The position numbers and the translations under genes are program-made. Of a stretch of DNA of 36,766 nt, positions 17,198 through 26,477 are shown piece by piece (positions within the stretch are counted from its first letter, which is position 1; every line of letters begins with the position of its first letter). The notes beneath the pieces are model-generated. The model saw nothing but the letters and a program-made list of their open reading frames with translations, was not told the DNA's origin and did no database searches. The stretch is from Gammaproteobacteria bacterium (GTDB lineage Bacteria > Pseudomonadota > Gammaproteobacteria > DSM-16500), in NCBI GenBank assembly GCA_013288395.1, contig JABDBV010000008.1:1-36766 (forward strand). Direction: 5' to 3'.

Positions 17198-17749
17198 ATG
17201 TTAGCCGCCCAGGTAACGATTCGCGATATTCTTTCCACCTCCACTCTCGATTCTCACATCCGCAAACACATTGAAAAATTAAACCGATTCTATGACCGAA
17301 TAAGTAGTTGTAGAGTGGTGGTTGAATTATCTCAAAAACACAAACACCAAGGTAAGTTATACAATGCACGTATTGATATCACTGTTCCTGGCAAGGAATT
17401 GGTGGTCACGCGCAAAATGAGCCAAGACATTTATGTTGCTCTTCGTGATGCGTTTAAAGCCATCGAGCGGCAGCTTGAAGAACATTCCAAGAAACGTCAC
17501 GGTCGTGTGAAATCACATAATGACTCTTTACATGGCCATGTTGCACGGCTGATTTCAAGGGAAGGCTATGGCTTCATTGAAGGAACCGATGGCAATGAAT
17601 ATTATTTTAGTATGACGAATGTCTCTTATCCGCAATTCTCTCAGCTTAACATTGGCGACGCGGTCGAATATTTTGCCGAATCAGAAAGTGAGGGGCGGCA
17701 GGCGCATCATGTGATTCGGGAGCGGCATAATAATCACGAAATAGCATAA
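17198..17749 (+). CDS. ribosome hibernation factor fused to a cold-shock-like domain (HPF-CSD)
   Basis: A 183-residue, two-domain protein. Residues 1 to about 105 form an S30AE/HPF domain (VTIRDILSTSTLDSHIRKHI, beta-strand VVVELSQKH, ARIDITVPGKELVVTRK, DIYVALRDAFKAIERQL), which binds the small ribosomal subunit and inactivates ribosomes. Residues about 112-178 form a cold-shock/OB-like domain (HGHVARLISREGYGFIEG, EYYFSMTNV, GDAVEYF, AHHVI), which binds single-stranded nucleic acid. This differs from the classical long HPF, whose C-terminal domain dimerises ribosomes. ATG 17198 has AGGAG about ten bases upstream. A possible -10 (TATACT, 17157-17162) lies before it. It is probably induced in stationary phase or stress, by analogy with the family. 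Confidence 0.85.
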   Translation: MLAAQVTIRDILSTSTLDSHIRKHIEKLNRFYDRISSCRVVVELSQKHKHQGKLYNARIDITVPGKELVVTRKMSQDIYVALRDAFKAIERQLEEHSKKRHGRVKSHNDSLHGHVARLISREGYGFIEGTDGNEYYFSMTNVSYPQFSQLNIGDAVEYFAESESEGRQAHHVIRERHNNHEIA

Positions 17750-17820
17750 TTATCTTTTGGTCTTGCATTTCCCCCTTCTTCGCATTGATAATCCATCATC
17801 AGCGGATAAGGAGAAGAAAA

Positions 17821-18476
17821 TGCAACTTATTACTCGGTTAAATAATGTTATTTCTGAATTTGATTTATTAAAACACATGTTCTATCAAGCCTGGTCTAGG
17901 GGCGAGTTGAGTAAAGCGTGTTTACAGCGTTATGCGGCTCAGTATTATCATCAGGTTCAATCCTTTCCTCGTTTTGTTTCTCGTGTACATACACATTGCC
18001 CATATATTGAAGCGCGAAAGGTGCTGCTCGAAAATTTAGTAGATGAAGAAATCCATGGCACGGATCACCCCGCATTATGGATGCAATTTGCTGAGGGTTT
18101 AGGATCGCAGCGTGCACAAGTGGTAGATGAAAAACCGTTGGTAGAAACAGACTATATGGTCAATACCTATTATGAATTGGCCGAGGGCGATTGGCGTGAT
18201 GGATTGTGTGCATTATATGCGTATGAATCTCAAGTTCCCGCCGTCTCTGCTTCCAAAATTGATGGGTTGAAAAAATTTTATGGTATTGATGATGAGCGTA
18301 CATTAGCTTTTTTCACGGCGCATCAAGCATACGATGTGGAACATGCAGGACAAGTGGCTAGCTTAATTGAACAATACGTTGAACCAGAGCAGGCAGAACG
18401 CGCAACACGTAAAGCTGCCGCTGCTCTTTGGGGATTCTTAGATGGAATGTGTAAGGTTGAAGGGATTGTTTGTTAG
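17821..18476 (+). CDS. CADD-type (TenA/PqqC-like) 4-aminobenzoate synthase candidate
   Basis: A 218-residue all-helical protein of the heme-oxygenase-like/TenA superfamily, closest in pattern to Chlamydia CADD. CADD makes 4-aminobenzoate for folate in place of PabABC, using one of its own tyrosines as the source. A six-residue di-metal site is visible: E76, H83, E136, H168, D172 and H175, with the same spacing pattern as the CADD ligands. The counterpart of the sacrificed tyrosine is Y22 (HMFYQAW), and the counterpart of the proposed amino-donor lysine is K146 (SASKIDGL). The frame opens at a TTG at 17757, but ATG 17821 follows AAGGAG at a good distance. No pabA, pabB or pabC is in the window. 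The function is inferred from recalled family knowledge. Confidence 0.82.
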
Positions 18477-18512: not shown

Positions 18513-18736
18513 TTGTGTCGTCATATCCCTCTCACCCCTCTCACCCCTCTCACCCCTCATCCGCTCTTTGGGCACCTTCTCCCACAAGGGGAGAAGGCTG
18601 TGTAGTTAGGATTGTGGAGACATATGAGCTTCTAAAACGCTGAAATCCTTCACCTACCTCACTACGCAGCCTTCTCCCCTTGTGGGAGAAGGTGCCCAAA
18701 GGGCGGATGAGGGGTGAGAGGGATATGACAACACAA
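18513..18736. repeat. MITE-like inverted-repeat element, copy 2, with a 9-bp tandem expansion
   Basis: A 224-bp element whose core arms match copy 1 at 12167-12380 (arms begin CACCCCTCATCCG and end GGAGAAGGCTG), with a related loop. The outer arms (TTGTGT, then GTCATATCCCTCTCACCCC) pair with each other but differ from copy 1. The left arm has three tandem units CTCACCCCT (18531-18557), whereas the right arm has one, so the left arm has gained 18 bases. It lies between the convergent 3' ends of the CADD-type gene and the msh operon and may end transcription from both. Confidence 0.88.
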
Positions 18737-18755: not shown

Positions 18756-19157
18756 TTATGTGATCCCCGTCGCGGTAAAGGTTGCGCTGGTAGAACTAGG
18801 CCCTGTCAATGTACAGGTAACAGTGGCACCGACGGCTACGGCTGCCGAGGTAATAGTATAGCCGGTAGGCAGCCCACCCTGTAGTGCAGAGGATACATCA
18901 GTACAATTGGCAACCGCTACACCTAAACTCGCGCTTAAACTTCTGGCTGCGTAATTACTGCCATTTGCAGAGGATAGAGCGCCCGCTACACCGTTGGTAG
19001 CAGCAGTTTGAGCATTAGAAGAAAGACTAATAAATTTTGGTATAGCAACGGCTGCCAAAATACCAATGATGGCGATCACAATGATTAATTCGATTAAGGT
19101 GAAACCAGCCATTTTTTGCTTTTTATTCAGCCTACTGTTTCTCATAAATGCCTTCAT
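18756..19157 (-). CDS. MSHA-like type IV major pilin, paralogue 1
   Basis: A 133-residue prepilin. After a 17-residue basic leader comes the prepilin peptidase site G/FTLIEL with Glu5, then the hydrophobic helix (IIVIAIIGILAAVAIPKF). The small globular head carries two cysteines (VANCTD and VTCTLTG) that likely form a disulfide. It is the last gene of the msh operon. The mature sequence is very similar to the next upstream pilin, above all in ALQGGLPTGYTIT and the C-terminal tail. The start at 19157 has AAGGA ten bases upstream; an internal ATG 12 bases later is also possible. A major subunit role is inferred from size and paralogy. Confidence 0.88.
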   Translation of the reverse strand: MKAFMRNSRLNKKQKMAGFTLIELIIVIAIIGILAAVAIPKFISLSSNAQTAATNGVAGALSSANGSNYAARSLSASLGVAVANCTDVSSALQGGLPTGYTITSAAVAVGATVTCTLTGPSSTSATFTATGIT

Positions 19158-19180
19158 TTTAAAAAATTCCTTGAATAAGA

Positions 19181-19555
19181 TTAGGAAATGCCCGTAGCTG
19201 TGAATGTCGCCGTCGTAGAACTAGGTCCCGTTAACGTGCAAGTGACAGAGATTCCTACTGCAACTGATGCAGCGGTGATCGTGTAGCCAGTCGGTAAGCC
19301 ACCTTGCAATGCACCTGATAGATCAGTGCAATTCGCTACTGGAACGCCAAAAGAAGCGTTGAGTGAGCGTGCGCCATAATTCGTAGTGTTTGCTGAAGCC
19401 AACGCGCCTGCAATAGCATCCGTTGCCGCTGATTGTGCATTAGCGGATAAATTAATAAACCGGGGAATAGCCACTGCAGCAAGAATGCCAATAATAGCAA
19501 TGACGATGACTAACTCGATGAGGGTGAAACCAAATTGCAAACGCTTCCTTTTCAC
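19181..19555 (-). CDS. MSHA-like type IV major pilin, paralogue 2
   Basis: A 124-residue prepilin with a short basic leader (MKRKRLQFG), cleavage site G/FTLIEL, Glu5, the helix VIVIAIIGILAAVAIPRF and a two-cysteine head domain. It is a tandem paralogue of the pilin at 18756-19157, separated by 23 bases. The heads share long identical stretches and differ mainly between residues about 45 and 75 of the preprotein. In Vibrio the mshB/mshA pair occupies a comparable place, so one of the two may be a minor subunit, but here the two are so alike that duplication within this lineage is more likely. Confidence 0.88.
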   Translation of the reverse strand: MKRKRLQFGFTLIELVIVIAIIGILAAVAIPRFINLSANAQSAATDAIAGALASANTTNYGARSLNASFGVPVANCTDLSGALQGGLPTGYTITAASVAVGISVTCTLTGPSSTTATFTATGIS

Positions 19556-19577
19556 AATGCCACCCTTAGTTATCCCT

Positions 19578-20798
19578 CTAATGAGATAAATTTATCATAT
19601 TCCACACAGGTAAATAAACACCTAATGCAATGATTAGTATAAGTCCTGAAACGAGGGCAATGAGTACAGGGCCGATTGTCTCGCTTAAACGCCTTAAATC
19701 ATACTCAATTTCACGACCGTGAAAGTCGGCTATATACTCAAGTGCTGGACTTAGCTCACCACTTCTCTCTCCCACCGATAAAATTTGTGACTCTAATGGT
19801 GAAAACAGCTCAATTTTCGTAATAGCTTGGGTAAAAGGCATGCCGCGTTCGATGGATTCCTGCATATCTGCAATTTGTTTGACAATATAGGCGTTCGTTA
19901 ACGAATTTTTAACTAATTGTAGTCCTTGAGTGACGGAGATACTGGCTGATAAGGTAATAGAGAATAATTGACAAAATCGAATGAGAATTATTCTCTTTAA
20001 GAGTTTTCCTGACAGAGGTATTTTTAACATTATTTTGTCTTTACGGTATTTACCTTCGGGTGTTTTCAGGTAGCGGTACAAAAAGACACCGCCTATAAAA
20101 GATAAAACTAACAGATAAGGCCCAAAGTTTATGACAAAATCAGACATATCAATTAAAAATGTCGTCTGCCAAGGGAGAGAAACCGTTAAATTGGTGTAAA
20201 ACCGTGCGAAAGTGGGAATAACAAATATATTTAATATAATAATAGACGATACGATCGAGACCAAAACAAAAATGGGATAACGAAACGCTTGTTTGATTTG
20301 TTTGACACTGCTGATTTCAAACTCAAGATATTGATATAAGCGTCCAAAAGCGGCACTTAATTGCCCCGTGCTTTCACCAATTTGTACAAGGTTAATGATG
20401 AGTGGTGAAAAGGTTTCTGGAAAATGTTGCATGGAGACGGACAAGCTTTCGCCCTTTTCAAGATGTTCAACTAAGCCATCTAGCGCCGTTCCTAGTCGAA
20501 AACTACGTGTATATTCTCTTAATTGCTTTAAAGCCGTCACCATCGGGACATTCGCTTGGTGTAGTAACTGCATTTGACGGGTGAATACGGCTAACTCTTC
20601 TAAGTAGACGCGATCAGATTGCAGATGATCTTGTAACCTATCCCAAAGGGGGCGTTTTAATTGAACCACATCAATCTGGATGGGAGAAATACCCTCCTTA
20701 ATGAGTTCAGCATTGAGAATATCAATGGATAAGGCTGCACGTTTTCCAACTCGTAGGCGGCCTTCCCTGTCGCGGCCACGATAATCAAATTGAGGCAT
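19578..20798 (-). CDS. mshG: MSHA pilus inner-membrane platform protein MshG (GspF/PilC family)
   Basis: A 406-residue polytopic platform protein. It has the two duplicated GspF cytoplasmic domains (about 65-190 and 265-390, with ELAVFTRQMQLLHQANVPM and ILIRFCQLFSITLSASISV). These are followed by membrane helices near 165-195, 215-240 and 375-400. It couples the MshE motor to pilin extraction from the membrane. The N-terminus MPQFDYRGRDREGRLRVG is typical. It sits 15 bases downstream of mshE in the operon. Confidence 0.92.
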   Translation of the reverse strand: MPQFDYRGRDREGRLRVGKRAALSIDILNAELIKEGISPIQIDVVQLKRPLWDRLQDHLQSDRVYLEELAVFTRQMQLLHQANVPMVTALKQLREYTRSFRLGTALDGLVEHLEKGESLSVSMQHFPETFSPLIINLVQIGESTGQLSAAFGRLYQYLEFEISSVKQIKQAFRYPIFVLVSIVSSIIILNIFVIPTFARFYTNLTVSLPWQTTFLIDMSDFVINFGPYLLVLSFIGGVFLYRYLKTPEGKYRKDKIMLKIPLSGKLLKRIILIRFCQLFSITLSASISVTQGLQLVKNSLTNAYIVKQIADMQESIERGMPFTQAITKIELFSPLESQILSVGERSGELSPALEYIADFHGREIEYDLRRLSETIGPVLIALVSGLILIIALGVYLPVWNMINLSH

Positions 20799-20813
20799 AG
20801 TTGAAGCGCTCCG

Positions 20814-22511
20814 TTATATTTCGCCGGACATGCGAATGATTTCTTGCACGGTCGTGATGCCGCGATCCGCTAACGCTAAACCGGATTGCAGCAGCGATCG
20901 ATACAAGGGTTGCTTCGGTGCCAGTTTATAAAACAGACTGGTGTCATTTTTACGTAATGCGTCTGCTAATTCAGCTGTAATAGGCAATAACTCAAATATG
21001 CCTATACGTCCTCTGTAGCCAGTGTGATGGCAATAGGAACAACCAGCGCCGTGCTTAAAGACGGTTTCAATGGTATTAACATGCTCAACGGATTTGAGCC
21101 ATGTTTTTTCAGAGACGGTCAGTGGATCAGTAGTAATGCATTCATGACAAATTCGACGCACCAAACGCTGTGACATGACGGCACGCAATACGCTGGCAAC
21201 GAGGTAACCTTCCGCACCCATATCAATCAAACGTGTCACACTGCTAAGGGTATCATTCGTATGCAACGTTGCTAGAACCAAATGACCCGTCATGGCGGCA
21301 CGTAGCGAAATTTCCATGGTTTCTTGGTCGCGCAATTCACCAATCATGATGATGTCAGGGTCTTGACGTAAAATGGCGCGTAGAATAGAAGCAAAAGTAA
21401 GATCAATTTTCGGATTGACTTGCACTTGATTGACGCGTGGTAATCGATATTCCACTGGATCTTCAACAGTAATAATTTTGTCTTCGGGTTTATTTAATGT
21501 ATTTAGTGATGCATATAACGTTGTGGTTTTACCGCTACCGGTAGGGCCGACAATGAGAATTAAGCCATAAGAAGCAGTAAGCACTTGGGAATAGTATTGA
21601 TAAATTTCATCAGGCATACCAATTTGGTCTAGTTGTAACAAAATGTCAGTTTGGTTTAAAAGACGCATCACTAATGACTCGCCAAATTGTACAGGGATGG
21701 TAGAGACACGAACATCAAAGTTTTTATTTTTGACAGCTATAGTGAATCGACCATCTTGAGGCAAACGTTTTTCAGCAATATTTAAACCTGACACAAGTTT
21801 AATGCGTTGCACTAAGGCTTGTGTAATCGCCTTTTCCGGTATAATTTGCTCTTGTAAAACGCCATCAACGCGTAAACGAATACGTAAAACATTTAGACCA
21901 GGTTCTATGTGTATATCAGAAGCATTAATTTGAACAGCGTCTTCAAAGATGGAGCGTAGCAAATTAACGACCGGCATATCTTCGGTGGAAAAATCTTGTG
22001 TATCGGAAAAAAGATTAAGGGTGTTTGGTTTTAATTCCGCAGATAATGTTTCAGCAAAGTGAGAAATTTCATCGGCGCGACGATAAATGCTATCGAGTAC
22101 ATACAGTAAATCGTCTTCGCGGATCAGCGCCAAATCAATTTTTCGTTTTAATATACGCTCAATTTCTTCTTGGCCGAGTAAATCATTGGGGTCAACCATG
22201 CCAACTAGAATACTGGTAGCGTTATCTTTCAAAACAATGGCGCGCAAATGCCTTGAATAAAATTCAGGAAGTAATTTGACAGTTTCTTCATTGATGGGAT
22301 AATTTCGGAGATCAATATATGGTATGTGTAATTGTTCGGCTAACAGATGTAATAATTTATCTTCCTCAATAAAACCTAAGTCCACTAAAATTTGGCCGAT
22401 GCGTTTATCCGTTTTGCGTTGCACTTCGAAAGCGGCATTTAATTGCTCCTGTGTTACTAAATGCTGAGCTAACAGCATTTCAGCAATTAAACTTTTTTTT
22501 GGTCTAAGCAT
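20814..22511 (-). CDS. mshE: MSHA pilus extension ATPase MshE (GspE/PilB family)
   Basis: A 565-residue hexameric motor ATPase that drives pilin polymerisation. An N-terminal MshEN domain holds a c-di-GMP-binding motif at residues 37-60: R37-I-G39, G46, L53 and Q60 fit RLGxxLxxxGxxxxxxLxxxLxxQ. The ATPase core has Walker A (GPTGSGKTTT, near 320), an Asp box with RQDPDIIMIGELRD, and a His box. The four-cysteine zinc site (CHEC...CSYC) is also present. The frame opens at 22532, but ATG 22511 has AAGG eight bases before it and overlaps the mshN stop by 8 bases, so it is the likelier start. Binding of c-di-GMP is inferred from the motif. Confidence 0.93.
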   Translation of the reverse strand: MLRPKKSLIAEMLLAQHLVTQEQLNAAFEVQRKTDKRIGQILVDLGFIEEDKLLHLLAEQLHIPYIDLRNYPINEETVKLLPEFYSRHLRAIVLKDNATSILVGMVDPNDLLGQEEIERILKRKIDLALIREDDLLYVLDSIYRRADEISHFAETLSAELKPNTLNLFSDTQDFSTEDMPVVNLLRSIFEDAVQINASDIHIEPGLNVLRIRLRVDGVLQEQIIPEKAITQALVQRIKLVSGLNIAEKRLPQDGRFTIAVKNKNFDVRVSTIPVQFGESLVMRLLNQTDILLQLDQIGMPDEIYQYYSQVLTASYGLILIVGPTGSGKTTTLYASLNTLNKPEDKIITVEDPVEYRLPRVNQVQVNPKIDLTFASILRAILRQDPDIIMIGELRDQETMEISLRAAMTGHLVLATLHTNDTLSSVTRLIDMGAEGYLVASVLRAVMSQRLVRRICHECITTDPLTVSEKTWLKSVEHVNTIETVFKHGAGCSYCHHTGYRGRIGIFELLPITAELADALRKNDTSLFYKLAPKQPLYRSLLQSGLALADRGITTVQEIIRMSGEI

Positions 22512-23760
22512 CCGTGTCACCTTGCAAGACATGCAAACGTTTTTGTAAGTAAGCTAGCGAATCAGCGTTTAAATGGCCTTCAGTAATTGCTTTATTAAAT
22601 GCCTCAACGGCGCCTTGGCGCTGATTTAATTTGTCGAGTGACACGCCTAACCCAAACCACCAATTTCCATTATGCGGATTTAAATCTAATAACTGCTGAT
22701 AGATTTTGATGGCTAACTGATCATGATTGCTGCGCGTGTATAATGCCGCTATAAAGGCGTGATAGTCAGGATTATCAGAAAGCTGGGGTGCCGTATTTTG
22801 TAATAGAGCAATCGCGGCTTTAACTCTTCCTTGAGTAGTGAGTATACGTGCTTTTAATTCGATAAAGGGTGTATAGGTAGGATTTGCAGTTAGACCTTCT
22901 TCAATAATTTTGTTGGCTCTAGTTGGTTGCCCCTGGTCTAGCAAAAGTGCAGTAAGCGAGACGCGCGCATCTTTATGATTAGGGTCTGTTTTGAGCAATT
23001 CCGCCAAGCTGTTTATTGCATAAGAATAGTTGCCACTTTCAGCAGCTTTTAAAGCGACCTGATATTGCTCAAGCAGCAAACTATTCATGGCTTGTGTTTT
23101 GATTGGTATGGAAACAAAGCCATTTTTTACGTGATTCGCCGATGTTTGATATTCAATGGCAACGACTAATTCAGGATTTTTTTCATCCGTATTGAGATTG
23201 ACATATTTGATGGCGGCGCCCGGGTAAAGAGTGATATCAAATTGCGTATCTCCTCTTACTTTTTTCGTAGTAAGCTGTTGAATGGCTGTATTTAAATAGG
23301 TGGTCAAGGGGAGGGTGGACTGTAATTCAGCATGTTCAAGCACAAGATTTAATTTATTATTCATATCATCTGTGTTTAAACGATAAAGAGCGGCATGGTT
23401 TAGAAGAAAAGTTAACTCTGTAATATTGTCTTTTACTTGCAAGGTGACGCCGGTAATTAAAACGGGACTCAATAAGCTAGTGTCAATGGTGGAAGATGGT
23501 TCGAGAGCCTTGGATTGCACAGCAGGTAGGTGCGTGGGAATGGAAAGTTTTTGCTTTGGCTGGTGCATGTATTTGACAGTTGCGGTTATTAAAATCGCTG
23601 CAGCAACGATACCAAATATAATGCCGCTCAGTTTGTAGATGTGTTTAAATAAAAAATAACCATAGGATGGTTTTTCATTGATCAATATGGTGAGAGGCAC
23701 CATATGATGGGGCGATTTACGCTTCTCTAAATCTTTAAGCATGTTATTAATTAAACTCAT
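22504..23760 (-). CDS. mshN: MSHA biogenesis protein MshN, TPR protein
   Basis: A 418-residue protein beginning MSLINNMLKDLEKRKSP, the N-terminus typical of MshN. A single membrane helix follows (about 45-65), then a periplasmic region ending in tetratricopeptide-like repeats (about 220-410: ALKAAESGNYSYAINSL, YQQLLDLNPHNGNWWFGLG and similar). In Vibrio, MshN is needed for MSHA assembly, probably as a scaffold. The frame extends to 23841 into mshM, but the methionine at 23760 matches the family and has AGGAA upstream. Its stop overlaps the mshE start. Confidence 0.87.
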   Translation of the reverse strand: MSLINNMLKDLEKRKSPHHMVPLTILINEKPSYGYFLFKHIYKLSGIIFGIVAAAILITATVKYMHQPKQKLSIPTHLPAVQSKALEPSSTIDTSLLSPVLITGVTLQVKDNITELTFLLNHAALYRLNTDDMNNKLNLVLEHAELQSTLPLTTYLNTAIQQLTTKKVRGDTQFDITLYPGAAIKYVNLNTDEKNPELVVAIEYQTSANHVKNGFVSIPIKTQAMNSLLLEQYQVALKAAESGNYSYAINSLAELLKTDPNHKDARVSLTALLLDQGQPTRANKIIEEGLTANPTYTPFIELKARILTTQGRVKAAIALLQNTAPQLSDNPDYHAFIAALYTRSNHDQLAIKIYQQLLDLNPHNGNWWFGLGVSLDKLNQRQGAVEAFNKAITEGHLNADSLAYLQKRLHVLQGDTDA

Positions 23761-23777
23761 TATACAATGTTTCCTGC

Positions 23778-24668
23778 TTAGTAAATGATATAAACAGCAA
23801 ATAAAACAACCGTGCAAACACTTAAGCCAATGATCGCCCACTTACGTTTTTTTGTGCTTTTTACAGAATCCGTATCTTTTACTGCAACGCGCATGGTTCG
23901 ATGGCAGACTTGATGACTGCCGCGCCCATAAGCAACCAGTAATGCTTTGTGTGAAAGTATGTTGACGATGCGTGGTATGCCGCCGCTTGCTTTAAATAGC
24001 AAATTACTCGCTTTCTTTGTGAATAAATTTCCATGGGTATAACCAGCAACCGCGAGACGGTGATGTATATAGATATCCAAGTCTAGTCGGTTCATTAACG
24101 GTAATGAATAGGTAAAGCTGATTCGTTGTTTTAACTGACGTAAATGTGCTTTATTCAACCGTTCATCCAATTCGGGTTGGCCAAATAAGATGACTTGCAA
24201 TAATTTAGATGATTCTGTTTCAAGATTGGTGAGTAAGCGGATGGTTTCCAAACTTTCATCGGTTAATGCTTGCGCTTCATCTACAATAAGAATAACTTTT
24301 TTTCCGTTAGCGTGTAGCGTAATAAGGTGTTGGTAGATAGCAGTGAGCAACTCGTGTTGATCTTGCCACGAGGTGGGATCTAAGCCTAATTCTCGGGCAA
24401 AGGCTTTACGTACTTCTACTGGCGTTAGATCGGGATTGGGTATATAGGCTGATACAAAGCTATTATCTAAGCTTTCTAATAATTTTCTGCATAATAATGT
24501 TTTACCAGAACCAACTTCCCCCACGATTTTAATAAAGCCTTCACCGCTATTTACACAAAATTGCAGGATATTAAATGCTTCTTGATGGCCCTTTAATTGG
24601 CAGTAAAAATTTGGGTTCGGTGTTAAGGTGAAGGGCAGTGCCTGTAATTGAAAAAATTCTTGGTACAT
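23778..24668 (-). CDS. mshM: MSHA biogenesis AAA ATPase MshM (ExeA-like)
   Basis: A 296-residue ATPase of the ExeA/GspA group. It has a Walker A motif (GEVGSGKTLL near residue 51), Walker B (VILIVDEAQAL near 125) and sensor-type segments (LFGQPELDERL, RLRQ-like LRQLKQRISF). A C-terminal membrane helix (about 275-295) anchors it to the inner membrane. ExeA relatives help the secretin assemble through the peptidoglycan; here mshL lies directly upstream, 15 bases away. Unlike ExeA, no periplasmic peptidoglycan-binding domain follows the helix, which agrees with MshM. Confidence 0.9.
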   Translation of the reverse strand: MYQEFFQLQALPFTLTPNPNFYCQLKGHQEAFNILQFCVNSGEGFIKIVGEVGSGKTLLCRKLLESLDNSFVSAYIPNPDLTPVEVRKAFARELGLDPTSWQDQHELLTAIYQHLITLHANGKKVILIVDEAQALTDESLETIRLLTNLETESSKLLQVILFGQPELDERLNKAHLRQLKQRISFTYSLPLMNRLDLDIYIHHRLAVAGYTHGNLFTKKASNLLFKASGGIPRIVNILSHKALLVAYGRGSHQVCHRTMRVAVKDTDSVKSTKKRKWAIIGLSVCTVVLFAVYIIY

Positions 24669-24683
24669 AGTCGTTCGTCCCTT

Positions 24684-26477
24684 TTAAGAATCTGATCGTT
24701 CTGCCTCGTTACCAAATATTTTGGGCAAACTTCCCGTGTGGAAAGGACGTCTGAGCATTTGGAACGATTTTTTCTCTTCTTTCAATTCATTGGTAAAGCT
24801 ACGGTTATTGGCAATGATCGGTCGCAGCAAGATGAGTAATTCCGATTTAACAGATACCTGGTGTGTGCGTCTAAATATAGAGCCAAAGAAAGGAATATTA
24901 CTAAGCCAGGGAGTAGAGGCAATCGATTCAGTGGTGGCATTTTGCATTAAACCACCGATGACAACCACTTGGCCATTTTTGGCGCGTACGATGTTGTCAG
25001 ATTCACGAATCGTGCTGTTTGCAAGCGGCAGAGTCAGATTATTTGGCGATCCTACCGCGTTTGAACCTAAGCCTATCACTTTAATTTGTTCGGTGACTTT
25101 ACTGACACTGGGATGTATGTGTAAAACGACTGTGTCATTTTCACCGATTTCAGGCGTCACATCTAAAGTGACCCCTGAAAAGAATGGGGTTAATGAAACA
25201 TTTTGAGAGGGTAAGGTGCTGGTGCCGATAATGGAGTTGGTGGTCGATACACCCGTTACAAAAAACTCATCCTGACCAACTTTGATCACGGCTTTTTGGT
25301 TATTCACGGTTGAGATGTGTGGACTTGATAACACCTGCACATTGCCCTGCGTTTGCAATAAGCTGATCAGTACTTTGAAGTTACCATTGATACGGATGGC
25401 GAACACGCCGGTTGCTGTGATATCTTTTAAATCAGTGCCTAAAATTTCTTTTGTTGAAAATTGTCCCATACCAGCGGTGGTATCGACGATAGGGTTACCA
25501 TTAATATCGACTTGAGCAGGGTTACCTAGAATGCTCCAGTCTACACCTGCTTGGTATTCATCATTTAACTGAACTTCAAGGATTTTAGCTTCAAGAATGA
25601 CTTGCCGGTTCAGGCTGGTTTGTAAACTATTTAAGTACCGCGCAACATGATTGAGTTCAATGGGGAAAGAACGCACAGAAATTAAGCCTGATTGCGCATT
25701 CACGGTGACTCGACGGCCATCTTCTTTGCCTACCATGTCGGTAATGGTTTTTTCTATATCAGACCAAAAGCGCGTTTCCGATTTTGTTTCTAGGCTGCTG
25801 ATGGTGCCGATACCTTCTGGTGTGGAACCAGACTGCCCGCCGCCTGGCGTACTACCTGATTGATTACCGGTATAAATGGATGTGCCACCAACGGTGGTGG
25901 TACCCACAGAGTTACTGATTTGCCCCGTGGTGAGCTGGGTATAAGACCGACCTTTTCGTTGCACATCAAGGTAATTGACATGAAAAACGCGCGTTTCTAA
26001 TTTAGGCGGCGATACTTCATAGCCATAAGAGGTACGGTGGTATTCAAAACCGTATATGTCCCGCACTGCATCCATGGTTTGTCTGATGGTGACATTTTTC
26101 AAACTCAAAGAAATGGTGCCGTTGATATTAGGGCTGATGATCATATTATCATTGGTGCCAGCGACCAAACTCATGAAAAATTCTTTAGCAGGCACTTTGT
26201 TTGCGGCGACATCAAACCGTGGCGGCGTTTCTCGGCTGGGGTTTACATAATGTGACAAGGGCGGCAAAAGAGCAGAATCAATGTTTGAAGGAAGTCTTCT
26301 TGAAGAAGCGCCAGCAATTCTTTGATTGTCTTTGATACTATCTTCCAATGTTTTCTCAGTGGCTTGCACAGAAACAGGATGGGTAGGATGAATGGTATGG
26401 CAGCTTATCAATAAAAAAGACAAACAAATTAGAAATAGGTTTGCGAAACGCTTGAAGTTTTTAGTTTGCCAATCCAT
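24684..26477 (-). CDS. mshL: MSHA outer-membrane secretin MshL
   Basis: A 597-residue secretin, the outer-membrane pore through which the pilus leaves. It is a lipoprotein: the signal peptide ends in LISC with Cys26 as the lipidated residue. An STN-like N-domain (about 95-160, NINGTISLSLKNVTIRQTMDAVRDIYG) and further N-domains precede the secretin core (about 285-560). The core carries the signature PWLSNIPFFGSIFRR near residue 540. A Gly/Ser-rich low-complexity stretch lies near 195-225. It is the largest member of the operon and lies 11 bases after mshK. Confidence 0.93.
   Translation of the reverse strand: MDWQTKNFKRFANLFLICLSFLLISCHTIHPTHPVSVQATEKTLEDSIKDNQRIAGASSRRLPSNIDSALLPPLSHYVNPSRETPPRFDVAANKVPAKEFFMSLVAGTNDNMIISPNINGTISLSLKNVTIRQTMDAVRDIYGFEYHRTSYGYEVSPPKLETRVFHVNYLDVQRKGRSYTQLTTGQISNSVGTTTVGGTSIYTGNQSGSTPGGGQSGSTPEGIGTISSLETKSETRFWSDIEKTITDMVGKEDGRRVTVNAQSGLISVRSFPIELNHVARYLNSLQTSLNRQVILEAKILEVQLNDEYQAGVDWSILGNPAQVDINGNPIVDTTAGMGQFSTKEILGTDLKDITATGVFAIRINGNFKVLISLLQTQGNVQVLSSPHISTVNNQKAVIKVGQDEFFVTGVSTTNSIIGTSTLPSQNVSLTPFFSGVTLDVTPEIGENDTVVLHIHPSVSKVTEQIKVIGLGSNAVGSPNNLTLPLANSTIRESDNIVRAKNGQVVVIGGLMQNATTESIASTPWLSNIPFFGSIFRRTHQVSVKSELLILLRPIIANNRSFTNELKEEKKSFQMLRRPFHTGSLPKIFGNEAERSDS

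What the first reader, a model, noticed from the sequence alone, without database searches (positions are those of the whole stretch)
17821..18476. Candidate self-sacrificing 4-aminobenzoate synthase outside Chlamydia
The six metal ligands (E76, H83, E136, H168, D172, H175), the tyrosine Y22 and the lysine K146 all fall at the spacings I recall for Chlamydia CADD. That enzyme makes 4-aminobenzoate from its own tyrosine. If right, this organism may have lost or bypassed PabABC. One enzyme copy would be spent per product molecule, so expression level would matter.
Basis: partly seen in the sequence, partly recalled or inferred. Interest (0 to 1): 0.65.

Follow-up and report, generated by a model that had tools for sequence, protein, structure and literature searches.

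The report
Self-consuming pABA synthase gene (CADD family)
This gene most likely encodes an enzyme that cuts up its own tyrosine to make the folate building block 4-aminobenzoate, in a group of bacteria whose genomes seem to have lost the usual way to make it; the enzyme type is already known from Chlamydia and Nitrosomonas, so this is a new member, not a new kind.

Summary
Confirmed: window 17820-18476 (+) encodes a 218-aa CADD-family protein (TIGR04305, 257.8 bits, cut-off 200); its predicted structure matches C. trachomatis CADD at TM 0.93. The six metal ligands, Y22 and K146 align with the CADD residues and are invariant in the family rows that cover them. The host genome is only 57% complete, so I judged pathway loss on its genus (17 genomes, 9 at least 90% complete). 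In those 9: pabB 0, pabA and pabC 0 over cut-off, chorismate synthase 0, FolP 9, FolE 9, CADD 8; the ninth assembly breaks in the gene just upstream. So the genus lacks the chorismate route to pABA, keeps the folate enzymes tested, and carries CADD. "Outside Chlamydia" is not new: Nitrosomonas NePabS is characterised, and Rickettsia and Wolbachia have relatives. Two points add something: intact CADD in a lineage with no detectable chorismate synthase, and a metal-side pair Y135/F164 intermediate between the two studied enzymes. The same pair in a NePabS mutant worked about equally with Fe/Fe and Mn/Fe, so this enzyme is predicted to accept either. Activity was not tested.

The parts
17820..18476 (+). 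CADD-family (TIGR04305) protein, 218 aa: candidate self-sacrificing 4-aminobenzoate synthase. Sacrificial Y22 and K146; ligands E76, H83, E136, H168, D172, H175; further conserved Y38, Y42, W87; metal-side pair Y135/F164
17807..17813 (+). Ribosome-binding-like AAGGAGA before the ATG at 17820 (position read from the printed sequence)
   Evidence: sequence inspection only
17198..17749 (+). Conserved upstream neighbour: ribosome-hibernation-factor-like domain joined to a cold-shock domain (hpf-csd). Neighbour, not shown to be functionally linked
   Evidence: directly upstream of CADD in 8 of 8 genus loci L002-L009
15985..17088 (+). Conserved upstream neighbour: 3-hydroxyisobutyryl-CoA hydrolase-like
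   Evidence: upstream in 8 of 8 genus loci L002-L009

Best explanation
The gene encodes a heme-oxygenase-fold dimetal oxygenase that makes one 4-aminobenzoate per protein molecule. The reduced metal pair plus O2 oxidises the protein's own Tyr22, whose side chain is cut off the backbone (leaving glycine), and Lys146 gives the amino group. In this genus it stands in for PabABC: no PabB is detectable, no PabA or PabC passes its cut-off, and chorismate synthase is missing too, while FolP is found in nearly all genomes, FolE in most, and FolB, FolK and FolC lie beside FolP where I looked. Folate synthesis would then draw its aromatic ring from protein tyrosine, presumably imported, and not from chorismate. 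Shown here: family, fold, residues, gene presence and absence. Inferred: the chemistry, the physiological role, tyrosine import. Predicted from the pair Y135/F164: activity with both Fe/Fe and Mn/Fe.
For: TIGR04305 257.8 bits against a cut-off of 200. Best solved relatives are 4-aminobenzoate synthases. Model pLDDT 95.3, TM 0.93 to CtCADD against 0.89 or less to PqqC. Both sacrificial residues and all six ligands invariant in the family rows that cover them, 23 or 24 of 24. Genus: pabB 0 of 17, pabC 0 of 17 over cut-off, pabA 0 of 17 over cut-off, aroC 0 of 17, FolP 15 of 17, FolE 14 of 17, CADD 13 of 17. NePabS, about 41% identical over the 9pj4-like stretch, makes pABA in vitro and its gene rescues an E. 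coli pabABC deletion (PMC11965152).
Against: No activity data. Not next to folate genes. CADD was not found in 4 of 17 genus genomes, though two of those assemblies break just upstream. FolP was not found in the window's own incomplete genome. In the same taxonomic family G027 (100% complete) has FolP but no pabB, aroC or CADD at E<=1e-3, so pABA uptake may serve such bacteria.
Confidence: 0.88

Rival explanations
1. The protein is a CADD relative with another oxidase job on a small molecule, and pABA or folate is imported.
For: The heme-oxygenase-like fold hosts many reactions (PMC11965152 introduction). G027 in the same family seems to live with FolP and none of the known pABA routes.
Against: The residues essential for self-sacrifice, not needed by other oxidases of the fold, are invariant. 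Scores to PqqC and BesC models are far under their cut-offs. The folate enzymes that use pABA are kept.
Confidence: 0.07
2. It makes pABA but is a back-up; the main supply is uptake from the surroundings or from a host.
For: 4 of 17 genus genomes show no CADD, and G012 has a broken reading frame.
Against: The four absences show no empty site: two contigs end just upstream and two lack the neighbours as well. One fixed chromosomal place and purifying selection argue for use.
Confidence: 0.15
3. As reported for C. trachomatis CADD, the protein has or had a second role in signalling to a eukaryotic host cell.
For: CADD is called a moonlighting protein that also signals host-cell apoptosis (PMC11965152).
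Against: Nothing found here points to it and it was not tested; NePabS comes from an environmental bacterium.
Confidence: 0.04

Closest known systems
NePabS (NE1434), Nitrosomonas europaea
   Same: Same family, sacrificial Tyr and Lys, six ligands, essential second Tyr (Y41, here Y38), and the Tyr and Trp that matter (Y45 and W99, here Y42 and W87) (PMC11965152). Like NePabS it is not in a folate cluster.
   Different: About 41% identical to the close relative 9pj4. Metal-side pair Y/F here, F/F in NePabS. The ten-residue loop of NePabS is absent here (alignment). Host genus lacks chorismate synthase.
CADD (CT610), Chlamydia trachomatis
   Same: Same family and fold (TM 0.93), same sacrificial residues and ligands.
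   Different: About 37% identical over the structural match. Metal-side pair Y/Y in CADD, Y/F here. CADD lies in a folate gene cluster (PMC11965152, Fig. 1 legend); this gene does not.
Rickettsia TIGR04305 gene (frC)
   Same: Family member in bacteria without PabABC or chorismate (PMC5615194, passages).
   Different: There the gene is described as degraded in almost all genomes with an eroding folate pathway; here it is intact with the folate enzymes kept.
PqqC, BesC, UndA and other heme-oxygenase-like oxidases
   Same: Same general fold; Pfam families PF14518 and PF03070 are matched over cut-off.
   Different: PqqC and BesC models match at 39 and 35 bits, cut-offs 240 and 500; UndA 15-18% identical in structural match.

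Membership tests
CADD / self-sacrificing pABA synthase (TIGR04305) | Score over the curated family cut-off | tested here: met
   257.8 bits, cut-off 200
CADD / self-sacrificing pABA synthase (TIGR04305) | Heme-oxygenase-like fold closest to CADD | tested here: met
   pLDDT 95.3; TM 0.93 to 8vag, 8va9; 0.89 or less to PqqC
CADD / self-sacrificing pABA synthase (TIGR04305) | Six metal ligands (3 His, 3 carboxylates) | tested here: met
   E76, H83, E136, H168, D172, H175 aligned with CADD, invariant in 24 of 24 rows
CADD / self-sacrificing pABA synthase (TIGR04305) | Sacrificial Tyr and Lys | tested here: met
   Y22 in 23 of 23 rows that cover it, K146 in 24 of 24; aligned with Y27 and K152
CADD / self-sacrificing pABA synthase (TIGR04305) | Found where PabABC is missing while FolP is kept | tested here: met
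   Met at genus level; inconclusive in the own genome, 57% complete, where FolP was not found either
CADD / self-sacrificing pABA synthase (TIGR04305) | Makes pABA from its own residues with O2 and metal | not testable with these tools
   needs protein
PqqC (TIGR02111) | Score over the equivalog cut-off | tested here: not met
   39 bits, cut-off 240
BesC (NF042919) | Score over the equivalog cut-off | tested here: not met
   35 bits, cut-off 500

The most novel reading that the evidence does not exclude
A whole genus makes folate without chorismate: chorismate synthase and PabABC are gone and the self-sacrificing enzyme is the only internal source of pABA, so every pABA costs one translated protein carrying an imported tyrosine. 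Its natural Y/F metal-side pair makes it metal-flexible (Fe/Fe or Mn/Fe), perhaps the commoner state of the family, of which the two studied enzymes would be the extremes.
Probability: 0.5. Interest if true: 0.5.

Novelty: new member of a known kind. Interest (0 to 1): 0.4.

Why it matters
If right, it gives an intact case in which a self-consuming enzyme carries the pABA supply of a lineage without chorismate synthase, in contrast to the decayed Rickettsia case. It also supplies natural enzymes with the Y/F pair, to test the published claim that two aromatic residues set the Fe/Fe or Mn/Fe preference.

Tried and rejected
Longer TTG start at 17757: not preferred; an ATG with a ribosome-binding-like stretch and ORFs from the equivalent ATG in relatives fit better. 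Reading pathway loss from the own genome alone: rejected, 57% complete. Reading the 4 of 17 genus genomes without CADD as true losses: not supported. TrpG/PabA-family hits occur in all 17 genus genomes at E<=1e-3, all under cut-off; most lie in frames of about 350-400 or 520-550 aa, which I take, recalled and not scanned, for CarA and GuaA. PabC-like hit in G016 (124 bits, cut-off 176.85): nearer to D-amino-acid transaminase, itself under that family's cut-off. Origin of the gene by tree: unresolved; the genus copies form one clade (100/100), their place among other lineages is weak and long branches are flagged. A general link between CADD and loss of chorismate synthase: not supported; 7 of 11 CADD-bearing genomes outside the genus have aroC. 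Promoter and terminator scan: nothing usable. A taxonomic name for the group: not found.

Rows dropped before counts: the distant heme-oxygenase-like hits (21-57 bits) were left out of the family rows; four of those proteins were aligned and lack Y22 and K146. G012 (broken frame) was left out; G003 (contig edge) was left out of the tree and. L010, L013 and L017 (cut, broken or short matches) were left out of alignment A1.

Full report
What is there. Window 17820-18476 on the + strand is a 218-aa ORF, starting one base earlier than stated. It scores 257.8 bits to TIGR04305 (CADD family; cut-off 200), 39 bits to PqqC (cut-off 240) and 35 to BesC (cut-off 500). Its best solved relatives are 9pj4, 1rcw and 8va9, two of them named 4-aminobenzoate synthase and 1rcw being CT610, the same C. 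trachomatis protein. An AlphaFold model from 14 sequences (pLDDT 95.3) matches CtCADD at TM 0.93 and rmsd 1.4, and PqqC at 0.89 or less.

Residues. From the printed alignment with CT610, Y22, K146 and E76/H83/E136/H168/D172/H175 fall on CADD Y27, K152 and its six ligands. Y22, Y38, Y42, E76, H83, W87, E136, K146, H168, D172 and H175 are identical in every row that covers them; the truncated row lacks the first three. Of four distant heme-oxygenase-like proteins aligned, none has Y22 or K146; G019 keeps five of the six ligands, the other three keep only E136. In NePabS, Y25, Y41 and K159 are essential and Y45 and W99 matter (PMC11965152; parts 1-4 of 6 of the text read); the window has all five counterparts.

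Metal-side pair. CADD has Y141/Y170 and prefers Mn/Fe; NePabS has F148/F177 and prefers Fe/Fe; the NePabS F148Y variant, a Y/F pair, works about equally with both (PMC11965152). The window has Y135/F164, that same pair. So have 22 of the 24 rows; only 9pj4 and L044 have F/F. The prediction is an enzyme that accepts either metal pair. The rows are not independent (12 are one genus) and no Chlamydia is among them, so the share says little about the family as a whole.

Pathway in the genus. The window's genome is 57% complete, so its own gaps mean little. Among 17 genomes of the genus, own included: CADD in 13, of which 11 over cut-off, one at a contig edge and one with a broken frame; pabB 0 of 17 at E<=1e-3, and that model also picks up TrpE-like proteins in other genomes; pabC 0 of 17 over cut-off, one weak hit in G016 nearer to D-amino-acid transaminase; trpG/pabA 0 of 17 over cut-off; chorismate synthase 0 of 17; FolP over cut-off in 15, not G000 or G012; FolE in 14, not G003, G012 or G014. 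For the 9 genomes at least 90% complete (G001, G005, G006, G007, G008, G009, G011, G013, G016) the counts are CADD 8, pabB 0, pabC 0 over cut-off, pabA 0 over cut-off, aroC 0, FolP 9, FolE 9. FolC, a FolK-FolP fusion and FolB lie side by side in G011 and G016; FolB passes the domain cut-off, not the stricter equivalog one. In the 18 other genomes of the same taxonomic family, aroC is found in 15 and pabB in 13. These patterns reflect one or few evolutionary events, not 17 independent ones.

The four genomes without CADD. G016: the contig (5,047 bases) ends inside the hpf-csd gene that lies directly upstream of CADD elsewhere. G014: the contig (8,998 bases) ends inside the HIBCH-like gene, two genes upstream. 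G002 and G015: hpf-csd not found, and only distant HIBCH-like paralogues (27% identical). None of the four shows an empty site.

Neighbourhood. In the 8 genus loci with long upstream DNA (L002-L009), proQ, ech, hibch and hpf-csd lie upstream of CADD in 8 of 8 and the permease in 7 of 8; pilin genes lie downstream in 4 of 8. None of the five loci outside the genus (L011, L012, L014-L016) shares this order. So the gene sits in one chromosomal place in the genus and is under purifying selection, but is not beside folate genes.

How it probably works. By the scheme published for CADD and NePabS (PMC11965152), O2 at the reduced metal pair starts a radical that reaches the tyrosine through aromatic residues; the tyrosine side chain is cut off, the carboxylate oxygens come from O2, and the lysine gives the nitrogen; one pABA per protein. 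The residues for this are present; the steps themselves are inferred here. Without chorismate, aromatic amino acids would have to be taken up (inference; of the shikimate genes only aroC was tested).

What is known already. Self-sacrificing pABA synthases outside Chlamydia are in print: N. europaea is characterised; Wolbachia, Rickettsia, Chloroflexi and Sphingomonas are named as bearers (PMC11965152). A TIGR04305 gene in chorismate-less Rickettsia is described as mostly degraded (PMC5615194, passages). C. trachomatis expresses a shikimate kinase gene (PMC5811630, table passage), so shikimate genes exist there. Searches for TIGR04305 by name, for CADD with folate and endosymbiont terms and for names of relatives listed no paper that I recognised as describing CADD in this genus; I read only listings for these, and the library lacks most subscription journals. 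CADD is rare in the class: 7 of 369 sampled genomes, own included.

Limits. No activity data; incomplete assemblies; family models could miss strongly diverged genes; chorismate synthase stands in for the whole shikimate pathway; FolE also serves queuosine synthesis (recalled; QueC is encoded some genes upstream of CADD in G011), so FolE alone does not prove folate synthesis.

Noticed in passing
window 18513-18736: A palindromic element of about 224 bases right after the gene (arms of 75 nt, 91% complementary, plus outer arms of 28 nt, 96%), with three tandem copies of CCCTCTCACCCCTC; that motif occurs nowhere else in the window, and its inner core matched no fetched locus other than the window's own.
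   Followed up: partly
window 17198-17749: A ribosome-hibernation-factor-like domain joined to a cold-shock domain in one ORF.
   Followed up: no
G003:C29, G014:C33, G016:C75, G012:C54: Several draft genomes of the genus break within a few genes of CADD; repeats like the palindrome might be the cause, not tested.
   Followed up: partly
L013 / L030, G012:C54:358-992: The CADD reading frame is broken in G012, whose assembly (72% complete) also gave no FolP over cut-off and no FolE: loss of the whole pathway or a poor assembly.
   Followed up: no
G027 (same family, other genus, 100% complete): Has FolP but no pabB, pabC, aroC or CADD at E<=1e-3: its source of pABA is unexplained.
   Followed up: no
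window 18756-26477: Minus-strand cluster that looks like a type IV pilus or MSHA-like system with two similar pilin genes in tandem (names recalled from the ORF sequences, not scanned; ORFs, conserved in relatives).
   Followed up: no
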